Positions 22,839 to 29,247 of a DNA stretch of 48,875 nt are shown here, in pieces. The notes under the pieces were generated by a model, which worked only from the letters and a program-made list of their open reading frames with translations, did not search any database and had not been told where the DNA came from. Each line of letters begins with the position of its first letter. Within the stretch, counting starts at the first letter, position 1. Made by a program: the position numbers and the translations under genes. Source of the stretch: Bacteroidota bacterium (GTDB lineage Bacteria; Bacteroidota; Bacteroidia; JABEUT01); the NCBI GenBank assembly GCA_021823405.1, contig JAKAOA010000007.1, forward strand, positions 1 to 48,875, written 5' to 3'.

Positions 22839-22911
22839 GACTCCGTAGCTCAGTTGGTAGAGCAATTGACTCTTAATCAATGGGTCGGGAGTTCGAGCCT
22901 CCCCGGGGTCA
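22839..22911 (+). tRNA. tRNA-Lys(CTT)
   Basis: A complete cloverleaf. The acceptor GACTCCG pairs with CGGGGTC (one G.U). The D-arm contains AGCTCAGTTGGTAGAGC, the anticodon stem ATTGA/TCAAT encloses loop CTCTTAA (anticodon CTT), and the T-arm contains GTTCGAGCC. The discriminator is A22911 and no CCA is encoded. The last 12 bases of the gene (22900-22911) form most of the island's direct repeat, so the tRNA is kept intact after integration. Confidence 0.96.
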
Positions 22912-22912
22912 C
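22900..22912 (+). other. attL-like 13-bp repeat
   Basis: TCCCCGGGGTCAC covers the T-stem/acceptor end of tRNA-Lys. The identical sequence occurs at 28443-28455. The flanking bases differ on both sides, so the core is exactly 13 bp and contains the palindrome CCCCGGGG. Confidence 0.8.
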
Positions 22913-22915
22913 CTC

Positions 22916-22954
22916 AGTGGACTGGCAGTCAAATTTTAACGCCAGTCCACTTTT
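22916..22954 (+). terminator. Terminator after tRNA-Lys, supplied by the island
   Basis: AGTGGACTGGC (22916-22926) and GCCAGTCCACT (22941-22951) form a perfect 11-bp stem followed by TTTT. It lies inside the island, four bases after attL, and would replace the native terminator displaced to 28469-28507. Confidence 0.8.
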
Positions 22955-23581
22955 GTTTCGCCCAGAACTGAACCAAAAAACAGTTATTCCAAGCGTGAAC
23001 TTTCATTTATGGGAACCCTGCAACTTCCGTTGTCGGTTCTGCTTTGCATCCTTTCAGGTCTAAGTATTGACAGCTTAAATCCTGAAACGAATAGAAAGGC
23101 TGGAAGGTATAATAACCAAATATTATTTTCCGGGCTGGGTTATCTTGAAAAATGCCGGACAATTAAAGATGCCGGATTCCTGCTGAAAATAAATACTGTC
23201 GTACACATGCTGAATCAAAATGAAGTGCTATCTCATTTTATTGGACAAGCCAAACCTGAAAGATGGAAAATATTCAAAATTCTCCCGGTATTGGGTCAGA
23301 ATTCCGATGATATATCTGGTTTAGAAATAACTGATGCCGAATTCCAACATTTTCTTGATATAAATAAGGACCTTCCGCAGGGCATAGCAATTGTACCGGA
23401 AAATAACGATGCAATGACTGGCTCCTACCTGATGATTGACCCAGCAGGGAGGCTTTTTGACAATACTAAGGGTGTTTATACCTATGGTGAGCCAATCTTA
23501 AAGGCAGGAATTAATAGTGCTTTAAAAGGTATATATCAGGATTACGGCAAATTTATTGAAAGGAAGGGGCTTTATGTATAG
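22953..23581 (+). pseudogene. Disrupted prokaryotic viperin (pVip)
   Basis: Two frames carry the two ends of one radical-SAM protein. Frame 1 reads SVNFHLWEPCNFRCRFCFASFQ, with the CxxxCxxC cluster (Cys codons at 23019, 23031, 23040), and hits TAA at 23061. The next frame resumes at 23057 with GLSIDSLNPETN and continues through LLKINTVVHMLNQ, RWKIFKILPVLGQN, IVPENNDAMTGSYLMIDPAGRLFDN to a stop at 23579-23581. This C-terminal half closely follows viperin, including the human ILxxxGEN and VPESN...DSYLILD stretches. About 85-90 codons that should hold the GGEP-type SAM site are missing at the junction and the frame is shifted. Viperins make ddh-nucleotides that block phage transcription; this copy should be inactive. 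The 5' end is uncertain (TTG 22953 is possible). Confidence 0.82.
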
Positions 23582-23596
23582 ATGCTTAATTTTAGA

Positions 23597-23604
23597 TACT
23601 TTTG
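23597..23604 (+). promoter_or_regulatory. -7 box for the 199-aa island gene
   Basis: TACTTTTG, an exact match, lies 15 nt before ATG 23620. It rules out the in-frame TTG at 23602. Confidence 0.6.
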
Positions 23605-23619
23605 AACATTATAATTATT

Positions 23620-24219
23620 ATGGGCTTAACCATACATTATAGCGGTAGTTTCAATAAAAATGCTTCGTTATCTGAGATGATAGAGGAAGTAAAGGACATT
23701 GCGGAGATATATAAATGGAAATACAACATTTTTGAAAAGCAATTTCCAAAGAATGGCTTAGGGAAAGACGATTTTAACAATAAAATCTATGGAATTCATT
23801 TTACACCTCCAGAATGCGAGACCGTGTCCCTTACATTCCTTTCCAACGGTAGAATGAGTTGTCTGCCTAATTTAAGACATTTTGGAAATACTAAGGATGA
23901 AGAAAGAAGACAATTCATATACATGCTGTGGACTAAAACACAATTTGCTGGTGTTCAAACACACAAAGTAATTGTACATCTTTTAAAATACCTGAGCAAA
24001 AAATACCTTTCAGAGTTCAATGTTGATGATGAAGGACATTATTGGGAAACCGGGGATGAAAAAATATTGGAAAAAACCTTCCGTCAGTATAATGCTTTAT
24101 TAGATAATGTTTCCTCAGCAATACATAACTTCCCAATAAAACAAGGGGAAAACATTGAACAATATTTTGAAAGGGTTCTTAAAACAATACACTTGAAGAA
24201 GAAGAGAAACAAAAAATAA
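23620..24219 (+). CDS. Uncharacterised island protein, 199 aa
   Basis: It opens MGLTIHYSGSFNKNASLSEM and has no signal peptide or membrane helix, so it is cytoplasmic. Mixed alpha/beta, with conspicuous stretches IYGIHFTPPECETVSLTFLSNGRMS, MLWTKTQFAG, HLLKYLSKKYLSEFNVDDEGHYWETGDE and a very basic tail (HLKKKRNKK). From memory, proteins with a MGLxIHYSG opening recur as unknowns in Bacteroidota genomes; I cannot assign a domain or activity. It has its own promoter between the viperin remnant and the AlbA ATPase, so a defence role is possible only by association. Confidence 0.75.
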   Translation: MGLTIHYSGSFNKNASLSEMIEEVKDIAEIYKWKYNIFEKQFPKNGLGKDDFNNKIYGIHFTPPECETVSLTFLSNGRMSCLPNLRHFGNTKDEERRQFIYMLWTKTQFAGVQTHKVIVHLLKYLSKKYLSEFNVDDEGHYWETGDEKILEKTFRQYNALLDNVSSAIHNFPIKQGENIEQYFERVLKTIHLKKKRNKK

Positions 24220-24256: not shown

Positions 24257-25825
24257 ATGAATAATATGGCACTCCCGATAAATATAAATGAACTTCTAAA
24301 TGGCCAAATAGTTGAATGGGAAAGGCTGGAATTTAAAGAGGGCTGGAACCCGGAAGCTATTTTGCATACCATGTGTGCTTTTGCCAATGACACAAATAAC
24401 TGGGGCGGCGGATACATTATTATTGGTATTAAAGAAAAAAACGGGCGACCTATTCTGCCTCCGTTAGGGCTTAAACCTGACCAAATAGATGCCATTCAAA
24501 GAAAACTGTTAGAGCTTTGCCATAAAATAACGCCTAATTATTTCCCGGCAGCCGCTCCTGTAATATTTCAGAAAAAACATATCCTGATATTATGGTGTAT
24601 AGGCGGAGAAACCCGCCCCTATAAGGCACCTGTTAAATTGGGAGAAAAACCACAACAGGCTTACTATGTTAGGCGTTTTTCCAGTACTGTTAAAGCAAAT
24701 CATTCAGAAGAACTACAACTATATCAACTTGCAGCAAAAGTCCCTTTTGATGACCGCATAAACCATAACGCACAGATAACAGACCTGAAATTGCCCTTAA
24801 TTCGCTCATTCTTATCAGAAATCAAAAGCGACTTATATAAAACTGCTGACACTATTCCATTTAAAGAGCTTTGTCAGCAAATGCAAATCGTTAGAGGGCC
24901 AAATGAATTTATTAAGCCGGTGAATGTAGGTCTGCTATTCTTTAACGATTCACCCGATAGATTTTTTAGGGGAGCAAAAATAGAAGTAGTGGAATATCAA
25001 GATGATGAGGGAGACAAGTTTACTGAAAAAATATTCACAGGCCCACTTAATACACAGCTTCAGAATGCACTCCAGTACATAAAGAATATTGTAATTAAGG
25101 AACAGGTAAGAAAAGTAGAAAGCAGACCCGAAGCGGATAGATTCTTCAATTATCCTTATCAAGCAATCGAAGAAGCACTGGCAAATGCAGTTTACCACAG
25201 GGGATATGATGACCAAAGCACTATTGAAGTCAATGTTCGTCATAACCGGATTGAAATCTTATCTTATCCTGGGCCTATTCCCCCGGTGGACAATAAGCAA
25301 CTAAAAAAGCAGCATGTACTTGCCAGGGCTTATAGGAACCGAAGAATAGGTGATTTCCTTAAAGAGTTACACCTCACTGAAGGAAGAAGCACTGGGATTC
25401 CTAAAATCAGGAGAGCCATGAAAAGAAACGGCTCACCTGCTCCTGTTTTTGAAACGGACACCGATAGAGCATATTTTCTGACCACCTTGATGATACATAA
25501 GGGATTTACAAATACTGTGAATCAAGAGGCTCAAATTGAACAAGAGCAGGACACAAGCGAGGTACAAGTGGGGGCTAACTGGGGGCTAAGTGGGGGACAA
25601 GTAGGGGCTAAGTCATTACAGATACTAAAAGCGTGTATTAAACCTAAACGGAGAGCAGAAATACTTGAAATGCTGGATATGGCAAATAAATATAAAAATT
25701 ATGAAAGGCATATTCTTCCATTGGTCGCAAGTGGATTGCTCGCACTAACTATTCCGGACAAACCCCGAAGCAGCCAACAACAATATTGTACAACAGAGAA
25801 AGGTAAAAAACTAATAAAGAAGTGA
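24257..25825 (+). CDS. AlbA_2 (Schlafen-like) DNA-binding, GHKL-type ATP-binding protein
   Basis: A 522-aa protein of the family often annotated RecG-like or ATP-binding. Residues about 12-150 are an AlbA_2/Schlafen domain (LEFKEGWN, CAFANDTNNWGGGYIIIGIKE, YYVRRFSST). Residues about 290-400 are a HATPase_c_4-like segment (AIEEALANAVYHRGYDD, EGRSTGIPKIRRAM). The C-terminus is a winged-helix (about 450-520). The linker is encoded by a degenerate tandem repeat of GGGGGCTAA units (25568-25612). ATG 24257 is only 5 nt beyond a -7-like TTACTTTG (24245-24252), so translation may be leaderless or start at the fourth codon (24266). It may act as a regulator or defence effector. Confidence 0.82.
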   Translation: MNNMALPININELLNGQIVEWERLEFKEGWNPEAILHTMCAFANDTNNWGGGYIIIGIKEKNGRPILPPLGLKPDQIDAIQRKLLELCHKITPNYFPAAAPVIFQKKHILILWCIGGETRPYKAPVKLGEKPQQAYYVRRFSSTVKANHSEELQLYQLAAKVPFDDRINHNAQITDLKLPLIRSFLSEIKSDLYKTADTIPFKELCQQMQIVRGPNEFIKPVNVGLLFFNDSPDRFFRGAKIEVVEYQDDEGDKFTEKIFTGPLNTQLQNALQYIKNIVIKEQVRKVESRPEADRFFNYPYQAIEEALANAVYHRGYDDQSTIEVNVRHNRIEILSYPGPIPPVDNKQLKKQHVLARAYRNRRIGDFLKELHLTEGRSTGIPKIRRAMKRNGSPAPVFETDTDRAYFLTTLMIHKGFTNTVNQEAQIEQEQDTSEVQVGANWGLSGGQVGAKSLQILKACIKPKRRAEILEMLDMANKYKNYERHILPLVASGLLALTIPDKPRSSQQQYCTTEKGKKLIKK

Positions 25826-26012: not shown

Positions 26013-26357
26013 CTAATACCTCCTCTTCCTACGAATCAGGTAGTTATCAGCTTCCCTTTCAATCTCCTCTATTATTTTCCTGCGCCCGGATTGAATCCAT
26101 TCATTTATTTCCTGCCGGGAGAAGTAAAGACGTTGGCCTCGCTTGTAATAAGGAATACTCATTTTTGATGTAAACCCGTAAATTGTTTGAACAGACAGGC
26201 ATAGTAGTTCTGCAACTTGCTTTACGGTTATATATTCATTCTCACTCTGCGGGGCATCCCTGTTAACAATTTCCCGCAGCATCTGCTCAATGCTATCAAT
26301 TTTCGCCCGGATTTCACCAACAGCTTTAGGAAGCTGCTCAAAAGTTAGTTCATTCAT
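26013..26357 (-). CDS. Excisionase-like helix-turn-helix protein
   Basis: A 114-aa protein. The N-terminal half is a short coiled coil (QLPKAVGEIRAKIDSIEQML). Residues about 43-90 are a MerR/Xis-type winged HTH (EYITVKQVAELLCLSVQTIYGF, then IPYYKRGQRLYFSRQEINEWI). The tail is rich in Arg/Lys. HTH_17 proteins of this kind act as recombination directionality factors or as regulators in Bacteroidota elements. It is divergent from the serine recombinase (88-bp gap), a good arrangement for an excision control gene. The role is inferred. Confidence 0.8.
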   Translation of the reverse strand: MNELTFEQLPKAVGEIRAKIDSIEQMLREIVNRDAPQSENEYITVKQVAELLCLSVQTIYGFTSKMSIPYYKRGQRLYFSRQEINEWIQSGRRKIIEEIEREADNYLIRRKRRY

Positions 26358-26445: not shown

Positions 26446-27948
26446 ATGAAAAACATCAAAACATTTGAGAGATTTGCCAAAGGGAAACCAGCAAACAAAG
26501 AAAGGAATAACACTTGCGTTATCTACACAAGAGTATCCACAAAAGAACAGGCAGTGCATAATATGAGCCTTGATACTCAGCGACGAGCCTGTGAAACGTA
26601 CGTTAGGAAACAGGGGTACCGGATTATGGCCTATTTCGTGGGCACGTATGAAAGTGCAAAAACAGATGAGCGCATTGAATTTAACAATATGCTCTCTTTT
26701 GTTCAGAAAAGCCGGGAGAAAATCTCATACATTATCGTCTATAGTGTTGACCGTTTCTCCCGCTCCGGGGCAAATGCCATTTATATTACCGAGCAACTTA
26801 AACTTGTAGGAATTAGTGTTATTTCCGTGAGCCAGCCGACTGATGTCAGCACACCAAGTGGATGCCTGCAACAGAATATCCAGTTTATCTTCAGTGAATA
26901 TGACAATCAATTAAGAAGAGAAAAGACAGTTGCAGGAATGAGAGATAAGCTATTACGCGGGGAATGGTGTGTAAAACCACCAATAGGATATGATTCCGTA
27001 ACCATTAATGGCAAACGTTCAATTGTTGCCAATAAAAGCGGAGAATTAATTCGCAAAGCATTTTTATGGAAATTCTATGAGCATTTATCACAAAGTGAAA
27101 TAAGTCGGCGCCTTCAGGCAATGGGAATGAAAATTGGCAAAAGCCACTTATCCTGCGTACTCAAAAATCCATTTTACTGCGGCATTATTTCAAATAAGTT
27201 GCTTGAAGGAAGAGTAATTCAGGGGAAGCATGAAAAGTTAATTTCACAGGAAATGTTTCTCGCAGTTAATGAGCTATTATTTGCTGCCCGAAAACCCAAC
27301 TCATGTTATTGCATTGATAATGAGGAATTACCTCTTAAGCAAACACTATTCTGTAATAAATGTGGTGCAAAAATAACTGGCTATGTTATAATAAAGAAAG
27401 GCATTCCTTATTACAAGTGCCCGACTCTGCATTGCTCATGTAATAAAAACGCAATGCAGCTTGGTATTTTATATTCGGAATTACTCAGTGCGATAAAAAT
27501 TGATGACAAGAAGTATCCTTCATTAAAAAAGGAATTTGCCCTCAATTTTATACAGGTAGAAAAAATCACTCATAATAGCTTAAAAACATACAAAGGATAC
27601 CTTACCTGTGTCAGGAAAAGAATAGAACTTATTGAAGAAAGATTCTCTCTTGATGAGATAAGGGAAAGTCTTTACAATAAGCAACTTGCGAAATTCCAGA
27701 AAGAAAAAGAAGAAATTGAAAAACAAATGGAGAAAATAAAGGCCGGGTTGGTTCCAAAAAAGGACATCAAAGAAGAAGCGGAAAAAATAATTAATAACCT
27801 GCCTGAGATATGGATGTCGGGCAACCTTCGCACCAAAAGATTAATTCAGGCACTTATTTTTCCTGAAGGAATTCACTATGATAAGGCGATGAATAAGTTA
27901 TTCGTCAAAAGACTTGCACCGGGCTTTTACTTATCTAAGTTAGCATAG
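26446..27948 (+). CDS. Large serine recombinase (integrase)
   Basis: A 500-aa site-specific recombinase. The catalytic domain begins CVIYTRVSTKEQ, with the nucleophile S31, and continues with DTQRRACETYV and IIVYSVDRFSRSG. The recombinase domain follows (about 190-290: KPPIGYD, LSQSEISRRLQAMGMKI, NPFYCGII). Next come a zinc ribbon (CNKCGAKITGY...YYKCPTLHC, about 302-330) and a coiled coil (about 380-430). All parts of the large serine recombinase family are present and intact. It is the likely integrase for the tRNA-Lys island, although tRNA sites are more commonly used by tyrosine recombinases. Confidence 0.93.
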   Translation: MKNIKTFERFAKGKPANKERNNTCVIYTRVSTKEQAVHNMSLDTQRRACETYVRKQGYRIMAYFVGTYESAKTDERIEFNNMLSFVQKSREKISYIIVYSVDRFSRSGANAIYITEQLKLVGISVISVSQPTDVSTPSGCLQQNIQFIFSEYDNQLRREKTVAGMRDKLLRGEWCVKPPIGYDSVTINGKRSIVANKSGELIRKAFLWKFYEHLSQSEISRRLQAMGMKIGKSHLSCVLKNPFYCGIISNKLLEGRVIQGKHEKLISQEMFLAVNELLFAARKPNSCYCIDNEELPLKQTLFCNKCGAKITGYVIIKKGIPYYKCPTLHCSCNKNAMQLGILYSELLSAIKIDDKKYPSLKKEFALNFIQVEKITHNSLKTYKGYLTCVRKRIELIEERFSLDEIRESLYNKQLAKFQKEKEEIEKQMEKIKAGLVPKKDIKEEAEKIINNLPEIWMSGNLRTKRLIQALIFPEGIHYDKAMNKLFVKRLAPGFYLSKLA

Positions 27949-28040: not shown

Positions 28041-28283
28041 TGTGCTAATTCTGCTGCCACGCCATTGACATAATGAATAGTTATTTCGCACCCTAATCAA
28101 AAACAAATCAGTATGAACGAAAACGAGACAAAAGAAGAAGGGTATTTACCTAACACCTGTTGTTAACATAGTTATTAAAAATAAAATTTGGAAAAATCTG
28201 CTCATTTATATCGATGCAACATTATTATATTGAAATAATTTCATTATACTACAATATTGCATAAAGGTTGTTTATTTGAGGGG

Positions 28284-28337: not shown

Positions 28338-28442
28338 GCAATATAGTACTGCTTGGGATAATATAAAGGTAGATAGAGTTTAATTATATCCTTTAAAACA
28401 TATAATTCGCGTAAATCCTCGTAAATTTCGTTCGATATTGTG

Positions 28443-28455
28443 TCCCCGGGGTCAC
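28443..28455 (+). other. attR-like 13-bp repeat
   Basis: TCCCCGGGGTCAC is identical to the tRNA-Lys 3' end at 22900-22912. It lies outside any gene, with the displaced tRNA terminator just downstream, as expected for the distal junction of an island. Confidence 0.8.
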
Positions 28456-28730: not shown

Positions 28731-28743
28731 ATGGCTTTCTTTG

Positions 28744-28815
28744 TAGCGGGGGCTGGATTCGAACCAACGACTTTTGGGTTATGAGCCCAACGAGCTACCT
28801 CTGCTCTACCCCGCA
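28744..28815 (-). tRNA. tRNA-Met(CAT), elongator type
   Basis: On the minus strand the anticodon stem TTGGG/CCCAA holds loop CTCATAA (anticodon CAT). The D-stem is GAGC/GCTC and the T-arm is GTTGG-TTCGAAT-CCAGC. The acceptor stem pairs GCGGGG with CCCCGC, while the outermost pair is T.T, so the 5' base is uncertain. A TATCTTTG box lies upstream (28832-28839). A degenerate copy of the gene and its promoter follows at 29168-29247. Confidence 0.9.
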
Positions 28816-28831
28816 ATATATTTTAGAGTTG

Positions 28832-28839
28832 CAAAGATA
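28832..28839 (-). promoter_or_regulatory. -7 box for tRNA-Met
   Basis: The minus strand reads TATCTTTG, an exact match, 16 nt before the mature tRNA 5' end. Confidence 0.65.
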
Positions 28840-28850
28840 CGCTAAATATT

Positions 28851-29117: not shown

Positions 29118-29167
29118 AGTTATTAAATAGTAATACTTTAGATTTTTTTTATCCTACGACCTCAAAA

Positions 29168-29247
29168 GGGCTGGATTCGATCCGCCGGCTGGCGGATATG
29201 AGCACCAAGTGTTCTATCCCGCAATATATTTTAGAGTTGCAAAAATA
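29168..29247 (-). pseudogene. Degenerate tRNA-Met copy with intact promoter
   Basis: The 26 bases at 29218-29243 repeat exactly the promoter-proximal flank of the intact tRNA-Met (28810-28835), and the -7 box TATTTTTG is kept (29240-29247). The body keeps GCGGG, TAGA, GCTCAT and TCGAATCCAGCCC, but the anticodon stem and variable region are replaced. The replacement is a perfect inverted repeat, ATCCGCC-N4-GGCGGAT (29180-29197), which looks like a small palindromic insertion. No functional tRNA can fold. The rest of the gap to 29346 shows no gene. Confidence 0.75.

What the first reader, a model, noticed from the sequence alone, without database searches (positions are those of the whole stretch)
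22953..23581. A prokaryotic viperin broken by an internal deletion and frameshift
The N-terminal CxxxCxxC part and the C-terminal half are both clearly viperin-like, but about 85-90 codons including the GGEP-type SAM site are missing at 23057-23062 and the frame changes. The island thus once carried an antiviral gene. Its loss could reflect fitness cost, phage counter-selection or assembly error.
Basis: partly seen in the sequence, partly recalled or inferred. Interest (0 to 1): 0.75.

Follow-up and report, generated by a model that had tools for sequence, protein, structure and literature searches.

The report
Broken viperin gene in decaying island
A bacterial relative of the human antiviral enzyme viperin sits in a small mobile island next to a lysine tRNA gene, but it has lost its start codon and its central SAM-binding part, so it is a recently dead defence gene in an island that has lost several other pieces too.

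Summary
22971-23057 and 23057-23578 are the two ends of one prokaryotic viperin (pVip/SAND) gene. A net 250-bp internal deletion, measured against an intact 287-aa copy in a same-genus genome, removed the GGEP part and shifted the frame. The TTG 'start' at 22953 lies antisense to an 18-codon remnant of a large serine recombinase fused to pVip. That remnant runs into tRNA-Lys; the recombinase's displaced tail lies 5.5 kb away (28376-28450) beside the second copy of a 13-bp repeat (22900-22912 / 28443-28455). So the island is a tRNA-Lys-integrated element that has lost most of its original recombinase, most of an HTH gene, and pVip's start and middle. Low dN/dS (0.23) and few changes at conserved sites indicate recent inactivation. 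General island decay explains this best; an assembly error cannot be excluded without reads. The pseudogene is ordinary. Its vehicle is more interesting: related recombinase genes run antisense into tRNA 3' ends in 25 of 30 loci examined, although a 2014 paper states that serine integrases were not known to target tRNA genes.

The parts
22839..22913 (+). tRNA-Lys (CTT), the integration target, intact
   Evidence: ARAGORN
22900..22912 (.). left copy of 13-bp direct repeat TCCCCGGGGTCAC (attL core region), in the tRNA-Lys 3' end
   Evidence: exact repeat search
22904..22960 (-). 18-codon remnant of a large serine recombinase (NKSGLALKFDCQSTEVTP), boundaries approximate
   Evidence: matches NKNGLALNFQRQSTEVTP of the G009 C32 recombinase beside tRNA-Lys
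22968..22970 (+). CTG at the place of the pVip start codon (ATG in G009)
   Evidence: DNA alignment
22971..23057 (+). pVip 5' piece with CxxxCxxC at 23019-23042; frame ends at TAA 23061-23063
   Evidence: NF038283 2-24, E 3.9e-9; 91% DNA identity to G009
23055..23059 (+). deletion junction CAGGT: 250 bp missing net against the intact gene
23057..23581 (+). pVip 3' piece, other frame, open to its stop
   Evidence: NF038283 111-280, E 6.8e-48; 77% DNA identity to G009
23602..24219 (+). 205-aa ORF of unknown family (island cargo)
   Evidence: no Pfam, NCBIfam or PADLOC match
24257..25825 (+). Schlafen/AlbA_2 protein with RecG-like C-terminal domain (island cargo)
   Evidence: PF04326 E 2.6e-15, PF13749 E 5.2e-13
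26013..26357 (-). HTH_17 / excisionase-like protein
   Evidence: PF12728 E 3.5e-12, TIGR01764 E 7.9e-9
26446..27948 (+). second, different, open serine recombinase (500 aa)
   Evidence: PF00239 E 5.4e-28, PF07508
28078..28148 (+). remnant of the start of an HTH gene that is whole in G009 C103 (5002-5334)
   Evidence: 79% over 71 bp; rest of the protein not found in the window
28376..28450 (-). displaced C-terminal tail of the original serine recombinase (PGDTISNEIYEDLRELYVLKDIIKL)
   Evidence: 72% over 25 residues to the end of the G009 C103 recombinase
28443..28455 (.). right copy of the 13-bp repeat (attR core region)

Best explanation
This is a recently inactivated prokaryotic viperin carried by a roughly 5.5-kb element that a large serine recombinase inserted at the 3' end of tRNA-Lys. 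Integration split the recombinase's own 3' coding end between the two island ends (shown by comparison with two sibling sequences). Later deletions removed most of that recombinase together with the pVip start codon, cut 250 bp out of the middle of pVip, and cut an HTH gene (shown as sequence differences; order and cause inferred). Without a start, the GGEP part and a continuous frame, pVip cannot make a working radical-SAM enzyme (inferred from the family's known motifs). The likely cause is ordinary deletional decay of an island that had lost the recombinase that inserted it (inferred).
For: Both halves match pVip families in order, in different frames. Intact sibling gene gives a 250-bp net deletion with GGEP in the missing part. 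ATG to CTG at the fusion point. Recombinase remnant and displaced tail at the two ends, next to 13-bp repeats; the body of that recombinase is absent from the whole genome at E 1e-60. HTH remnant. dN 0.23 and dS 0.97 in the 3' piece; departures at 52 conserved columns: window 3 (one at the junction), G009 2, so the break is late.
Against: No reads were available, so each deletion rests on one assembly. No close relative with the same flanks and an empty site was found. The order of events is not shown. A second, open serine recombinase inside the island means that it may still be mobile in another way.
Confidence: 0.82

Rival explanations
1. pVip was lost selectively, because it was costly or because phages that counter it favoured its loss.
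For: Another truncated pVip was seen in an unrelated Bacteroidia MAG (L062). G009 has a kinase of only 67 aa behind its intact pVip, whereas related fusions carry about 180 aa of kinase.
Against: Other genes of the same island, a recombinase and an HTH gene, are also cut, so pVip was not singled out.
Confidence: 0.12
2. The deletion is an assembly or binning error and the organism has an intact pVip.
For: The window is from a fragmented assembly, 183 contigs, and no reads could be inspected.
Against: The junction shares at most two or three bases, too few to mislead an assembler (inference); the lost start codon and the other cut genes are separate lesions; no second pVip copy or orphan middle piece is in the assembly.
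Confidence: 0.05
3. The 190-aa ORF from the ATG at 23009 is a working shortened protein.
For: It is open from an ATG, and dN/dS is below 1.
Against: Its first residues are out-of-frame sequence; it lacks CxxxCxxC and GGEP; the low dN/dS can be shared history with an intact gene; no other genome was seen with this short form.
Confidence: 0.02

Closest known systems
Prokaryotic viperins (pVip; also called SAND; NF038283, PADLOC PDLC02903-02905)
   Same: Both ends of the protein, including CxxxCxxC and the conserved C-terminal half, match; nearest intact relative is in the same genus
   Different: No start codon, about 83 central codons with the GGEP part missing, frame broken, no kinase next to it
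Defence-system pseudogenes as recorded by PADLOC/PGAP (PMC9252829)
   Same: A defence gene broken by deletion and frameshift
   Different: Here the island's ends and further deletions can be traced, and an intact copy in a sibling dates the break as late
Genomic islands in tRNA genes (Islander, PMC4383910)
   Same: Insertion at a tRNA 3' end, short direct repeat at both ends, cargo with defence genes
   Different: Ends belong to a serine recombinase; Islander's authors knew only tyrosine integrases at tRNA genes
Archaeal SSV-type integrases divided by integration (from general knowledge, not tested)
   Same: The integrase gene crosses the attachment site and is divided by integration into a tRNA gene
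   Different: Here a bacterial serine recombinase, and only about 25 C-terminal residues are exchanged

Membership tests
Prokaryotic viperin (pVip/SAND), as a functional member | Sequence match to pVip profiles over both ends | tested here: met
Prokaryotic viperin (pVip/SAND), as a functional member | CxxxCxxC motif for the 4Fe-4S cluster | tested here: met
   CNFRCRFC at 23019-23042
Prokaryotic viperin (pVip/SAND), as a functional member | GGEP-type SAM-binding part | tested here: not met
   within the missing 83 residues
Prokaryotic viperin (pVip/SAND), as a functional member | One continuous reading frame with a start codon | tested here: not met
   CTG for ATG at 22968; frameshift at 23055-23059
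Prokaryotic viperin (pVip/SAND), as a functional member | Makes ddh-nucleotides and protects against phage | not testable with these tools
   needs expression and assay
tRNA-integrated serine-recombinase island | Direct repeat with one copy in a tRNA 3' end | tested here: met
   13 bp at 22900 and 28443
tRNA-integrated serine-recombinase island | Recombinase gene at the end of the island | tested here: not met
   only an 18-codon remnant and a displaced tail remain; whole in G009 C32
tRNA-integrated serine-recombinase island | Empty site in a close relative | tested here: inconclusive
   relatives have tRNA-Lys in other surroundings

The most novel reading that the evidence does not exclude
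The island belongs to a widespread Bacteroidia group of elements whose large serine recombinases target the 3' ends of many tRNA genes and whose recombinase gene crosses the attachment site, so that integration swaps the protein's C-terminal tail for one encoded antisense to the tRNA. The recombinase would thus differ between the circular and the integrated state, and such elements carry defence genes such as pVip.
Probability: 0.55. Interest if true: 0.6.

Novelty: new member of a known kind. Interest (0 to 1): 0.35.

Why it matters
It is a case of defence-gene turnover caught early: a viperin still nearly unchanged at conserved sites, broken inside an island that shows several lesions, with an intact copy in a sibling. 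PADLOC's authors note that many defence genes are annotated as pseudogenes and that such remnants could inform on defence-system evolution (PMC9252829). The vehicle may matter more: Islander's authors wrote in 2014 that serine integrases are not known to target tRNA genes (PMC4383910), yet relatives of this island's recombinase do so repeatedly.

Tried and rejected
Phages held only weak partial matches and viral contigs none; plasmids held only pVips of at most 42% identity. A native TTG start at 22953 was rejected: the upstream codons are antisense to a recombinase remnant. The hairpin after tRNA-Lys first looked like a plain terminator; its sequence matches the recombinase 3' end. Faster change at conserved sites on the window branch was tested and not seen. 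In nine related islands no second copy of 12 bases or more of the tRNA 3' end was found in the DNA searched, 10-40 kb each, and a pattern search for displaced recombinase tails found none, so the split is shown only for the window and G009. Structure prediction was not used: the fragment lacks the core of the fold and a model would not decide anything.

Full report
Observation. The stretch encodes the two ends of one prokaryotic viperin. The 5' piece matches NF038283 positions 2-24 and the 3' piece positions 111-280, in different frames; PADLOC pVip models give the same picture, and the 3' piece matches solved viperins. These matches are far beyond chance. It is the only copy in the assembly.

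Size of the deletion. A genome of the same genus, G009, holds an intact 287-aa pVip. Aligned to it, the window lacks a net 250 bp between CCTTTCAGG and CTAAGT; 83 residues are missing, among them ITFVGGEPTLCPW and TMIVTNGS. 250 is not a multiple of three, hence the frameshift and the TAA at 23061. At most two or three bases can be shared at the junction (inference, since the ancestor is not known).

A second lesion. Homology to the G009 gene starts at TGAACC, one base into the start codon: G009 has ATG, the window CTG. The sequence just before it, including the TTG at 22953, is not pVip. Read on the minus strand it is NKSGLALKFDCQSTEVTP, matching the end of a 524-aa serine recombinase that sits beside the same tRNA-Lys in G009 C32 (NKNGLALNFQRQSTEVTP). 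The rest of such a recombinase is absent from the window's genome (no match at 1e-60).

The island. A 13-bp repeat, TCCCCGGGGTCAC, lies in the tRNA-Lys 3' end and again at 28443. Next to the second copy, on the minus strand, is PGDTISNEIYEDLRELYVLKDIIKL, 72% identical over 25 residues to the end of the G009 C103 recombinase, where both parts are still joined (...QSHKVSP-NDQISNQIYDDLRDLYVLKGIIKI). The DNA similarity of this end scores 78, against a maximum of 27 in 500 shuffles. The best reading is that the recombinase gene crosses the attachment site and integration split it. In between lie broken pVip, a 205-aa ORF, a Schlafen/AlbA_2 protein, an excisionase-like protein and a second, different serine recombinase. 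At 28078-28148 is a remnant of an HTH gene whole in G009.

Timing. In the 3' piece dN is 0.23 and dS 0.97 against G009. At 52 columns conserved in 95% of 44 other pVips, the window departs at 3 and G009 at 2; one of the window's three is the residue at the junction itself. The gene was therefore under constraint for most of its separation from G009 and was broken late.

Cause. Several deletions in one small island make ordinary decay the simplest cause. Selection against pVip is possible: another truncated pVip was seen (L062), and G009 has a shortened kinase behind an intact pVip. An assembly fault is unlikely but cannot be tested without reads.

Beyond the finding. Thirty recombinases (G009 C32 and 29 class relatives) were examined; 25 overlap the 3' end of a tRNA gene in antisense, across Lys, Glu, Val, Pro, Asn, Leu, Arg and Met (one of them by a single base). 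Some relatives of the window's second recombinase do so too. A 2014 paper states that serine integrases are not known to target tRNA genes; later literature was searched only briefly, so priority is not established. The exchange of the C-terminal tail is shown only by the window and G009; it was not found at the far ends of nine other islands.

Noticed in passing
L088, L116-L144; window 22904-22960 and 28376-28450: Large serine recombinases of Bacteroidia whose genes run antisense into tRNA 3' ends (25 of 30 loci, eight tRNA types); in G009 and the window the C-terminal tail appears to be exchanged on integration.
   Followed up: partly
window 26446-27948; L102, L105, L108, L110: The island's second serine recombinase is open; four of the nine other matching loci examined overlap tRNA-Arg, -Glu, -Phe or -Lys in antisense. 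What it acts on in the window is unknown.
   Followed up: partly
L089 1025-2054: The intact G009 pVip is followed by a kinase of only 67 aa, about a third of the kinase part of related fusions; a TPR protein with a weak match to 'viperin-associated NERD' precedes it.
   Followed up: partly
L062 6001-6497: Another truncated pVip: similarity to the intact one ends after about 155 residues and unrelated sequence follows.
   Followed up: partly
window 29160-29240: A degraded repeat of the tRNA-Met region at 28743-28840 (shared CCCGCAATATATTTTAGAGTTGCAAA), seen by eye; perhaps a trace of another insertion.
   Followed up: no
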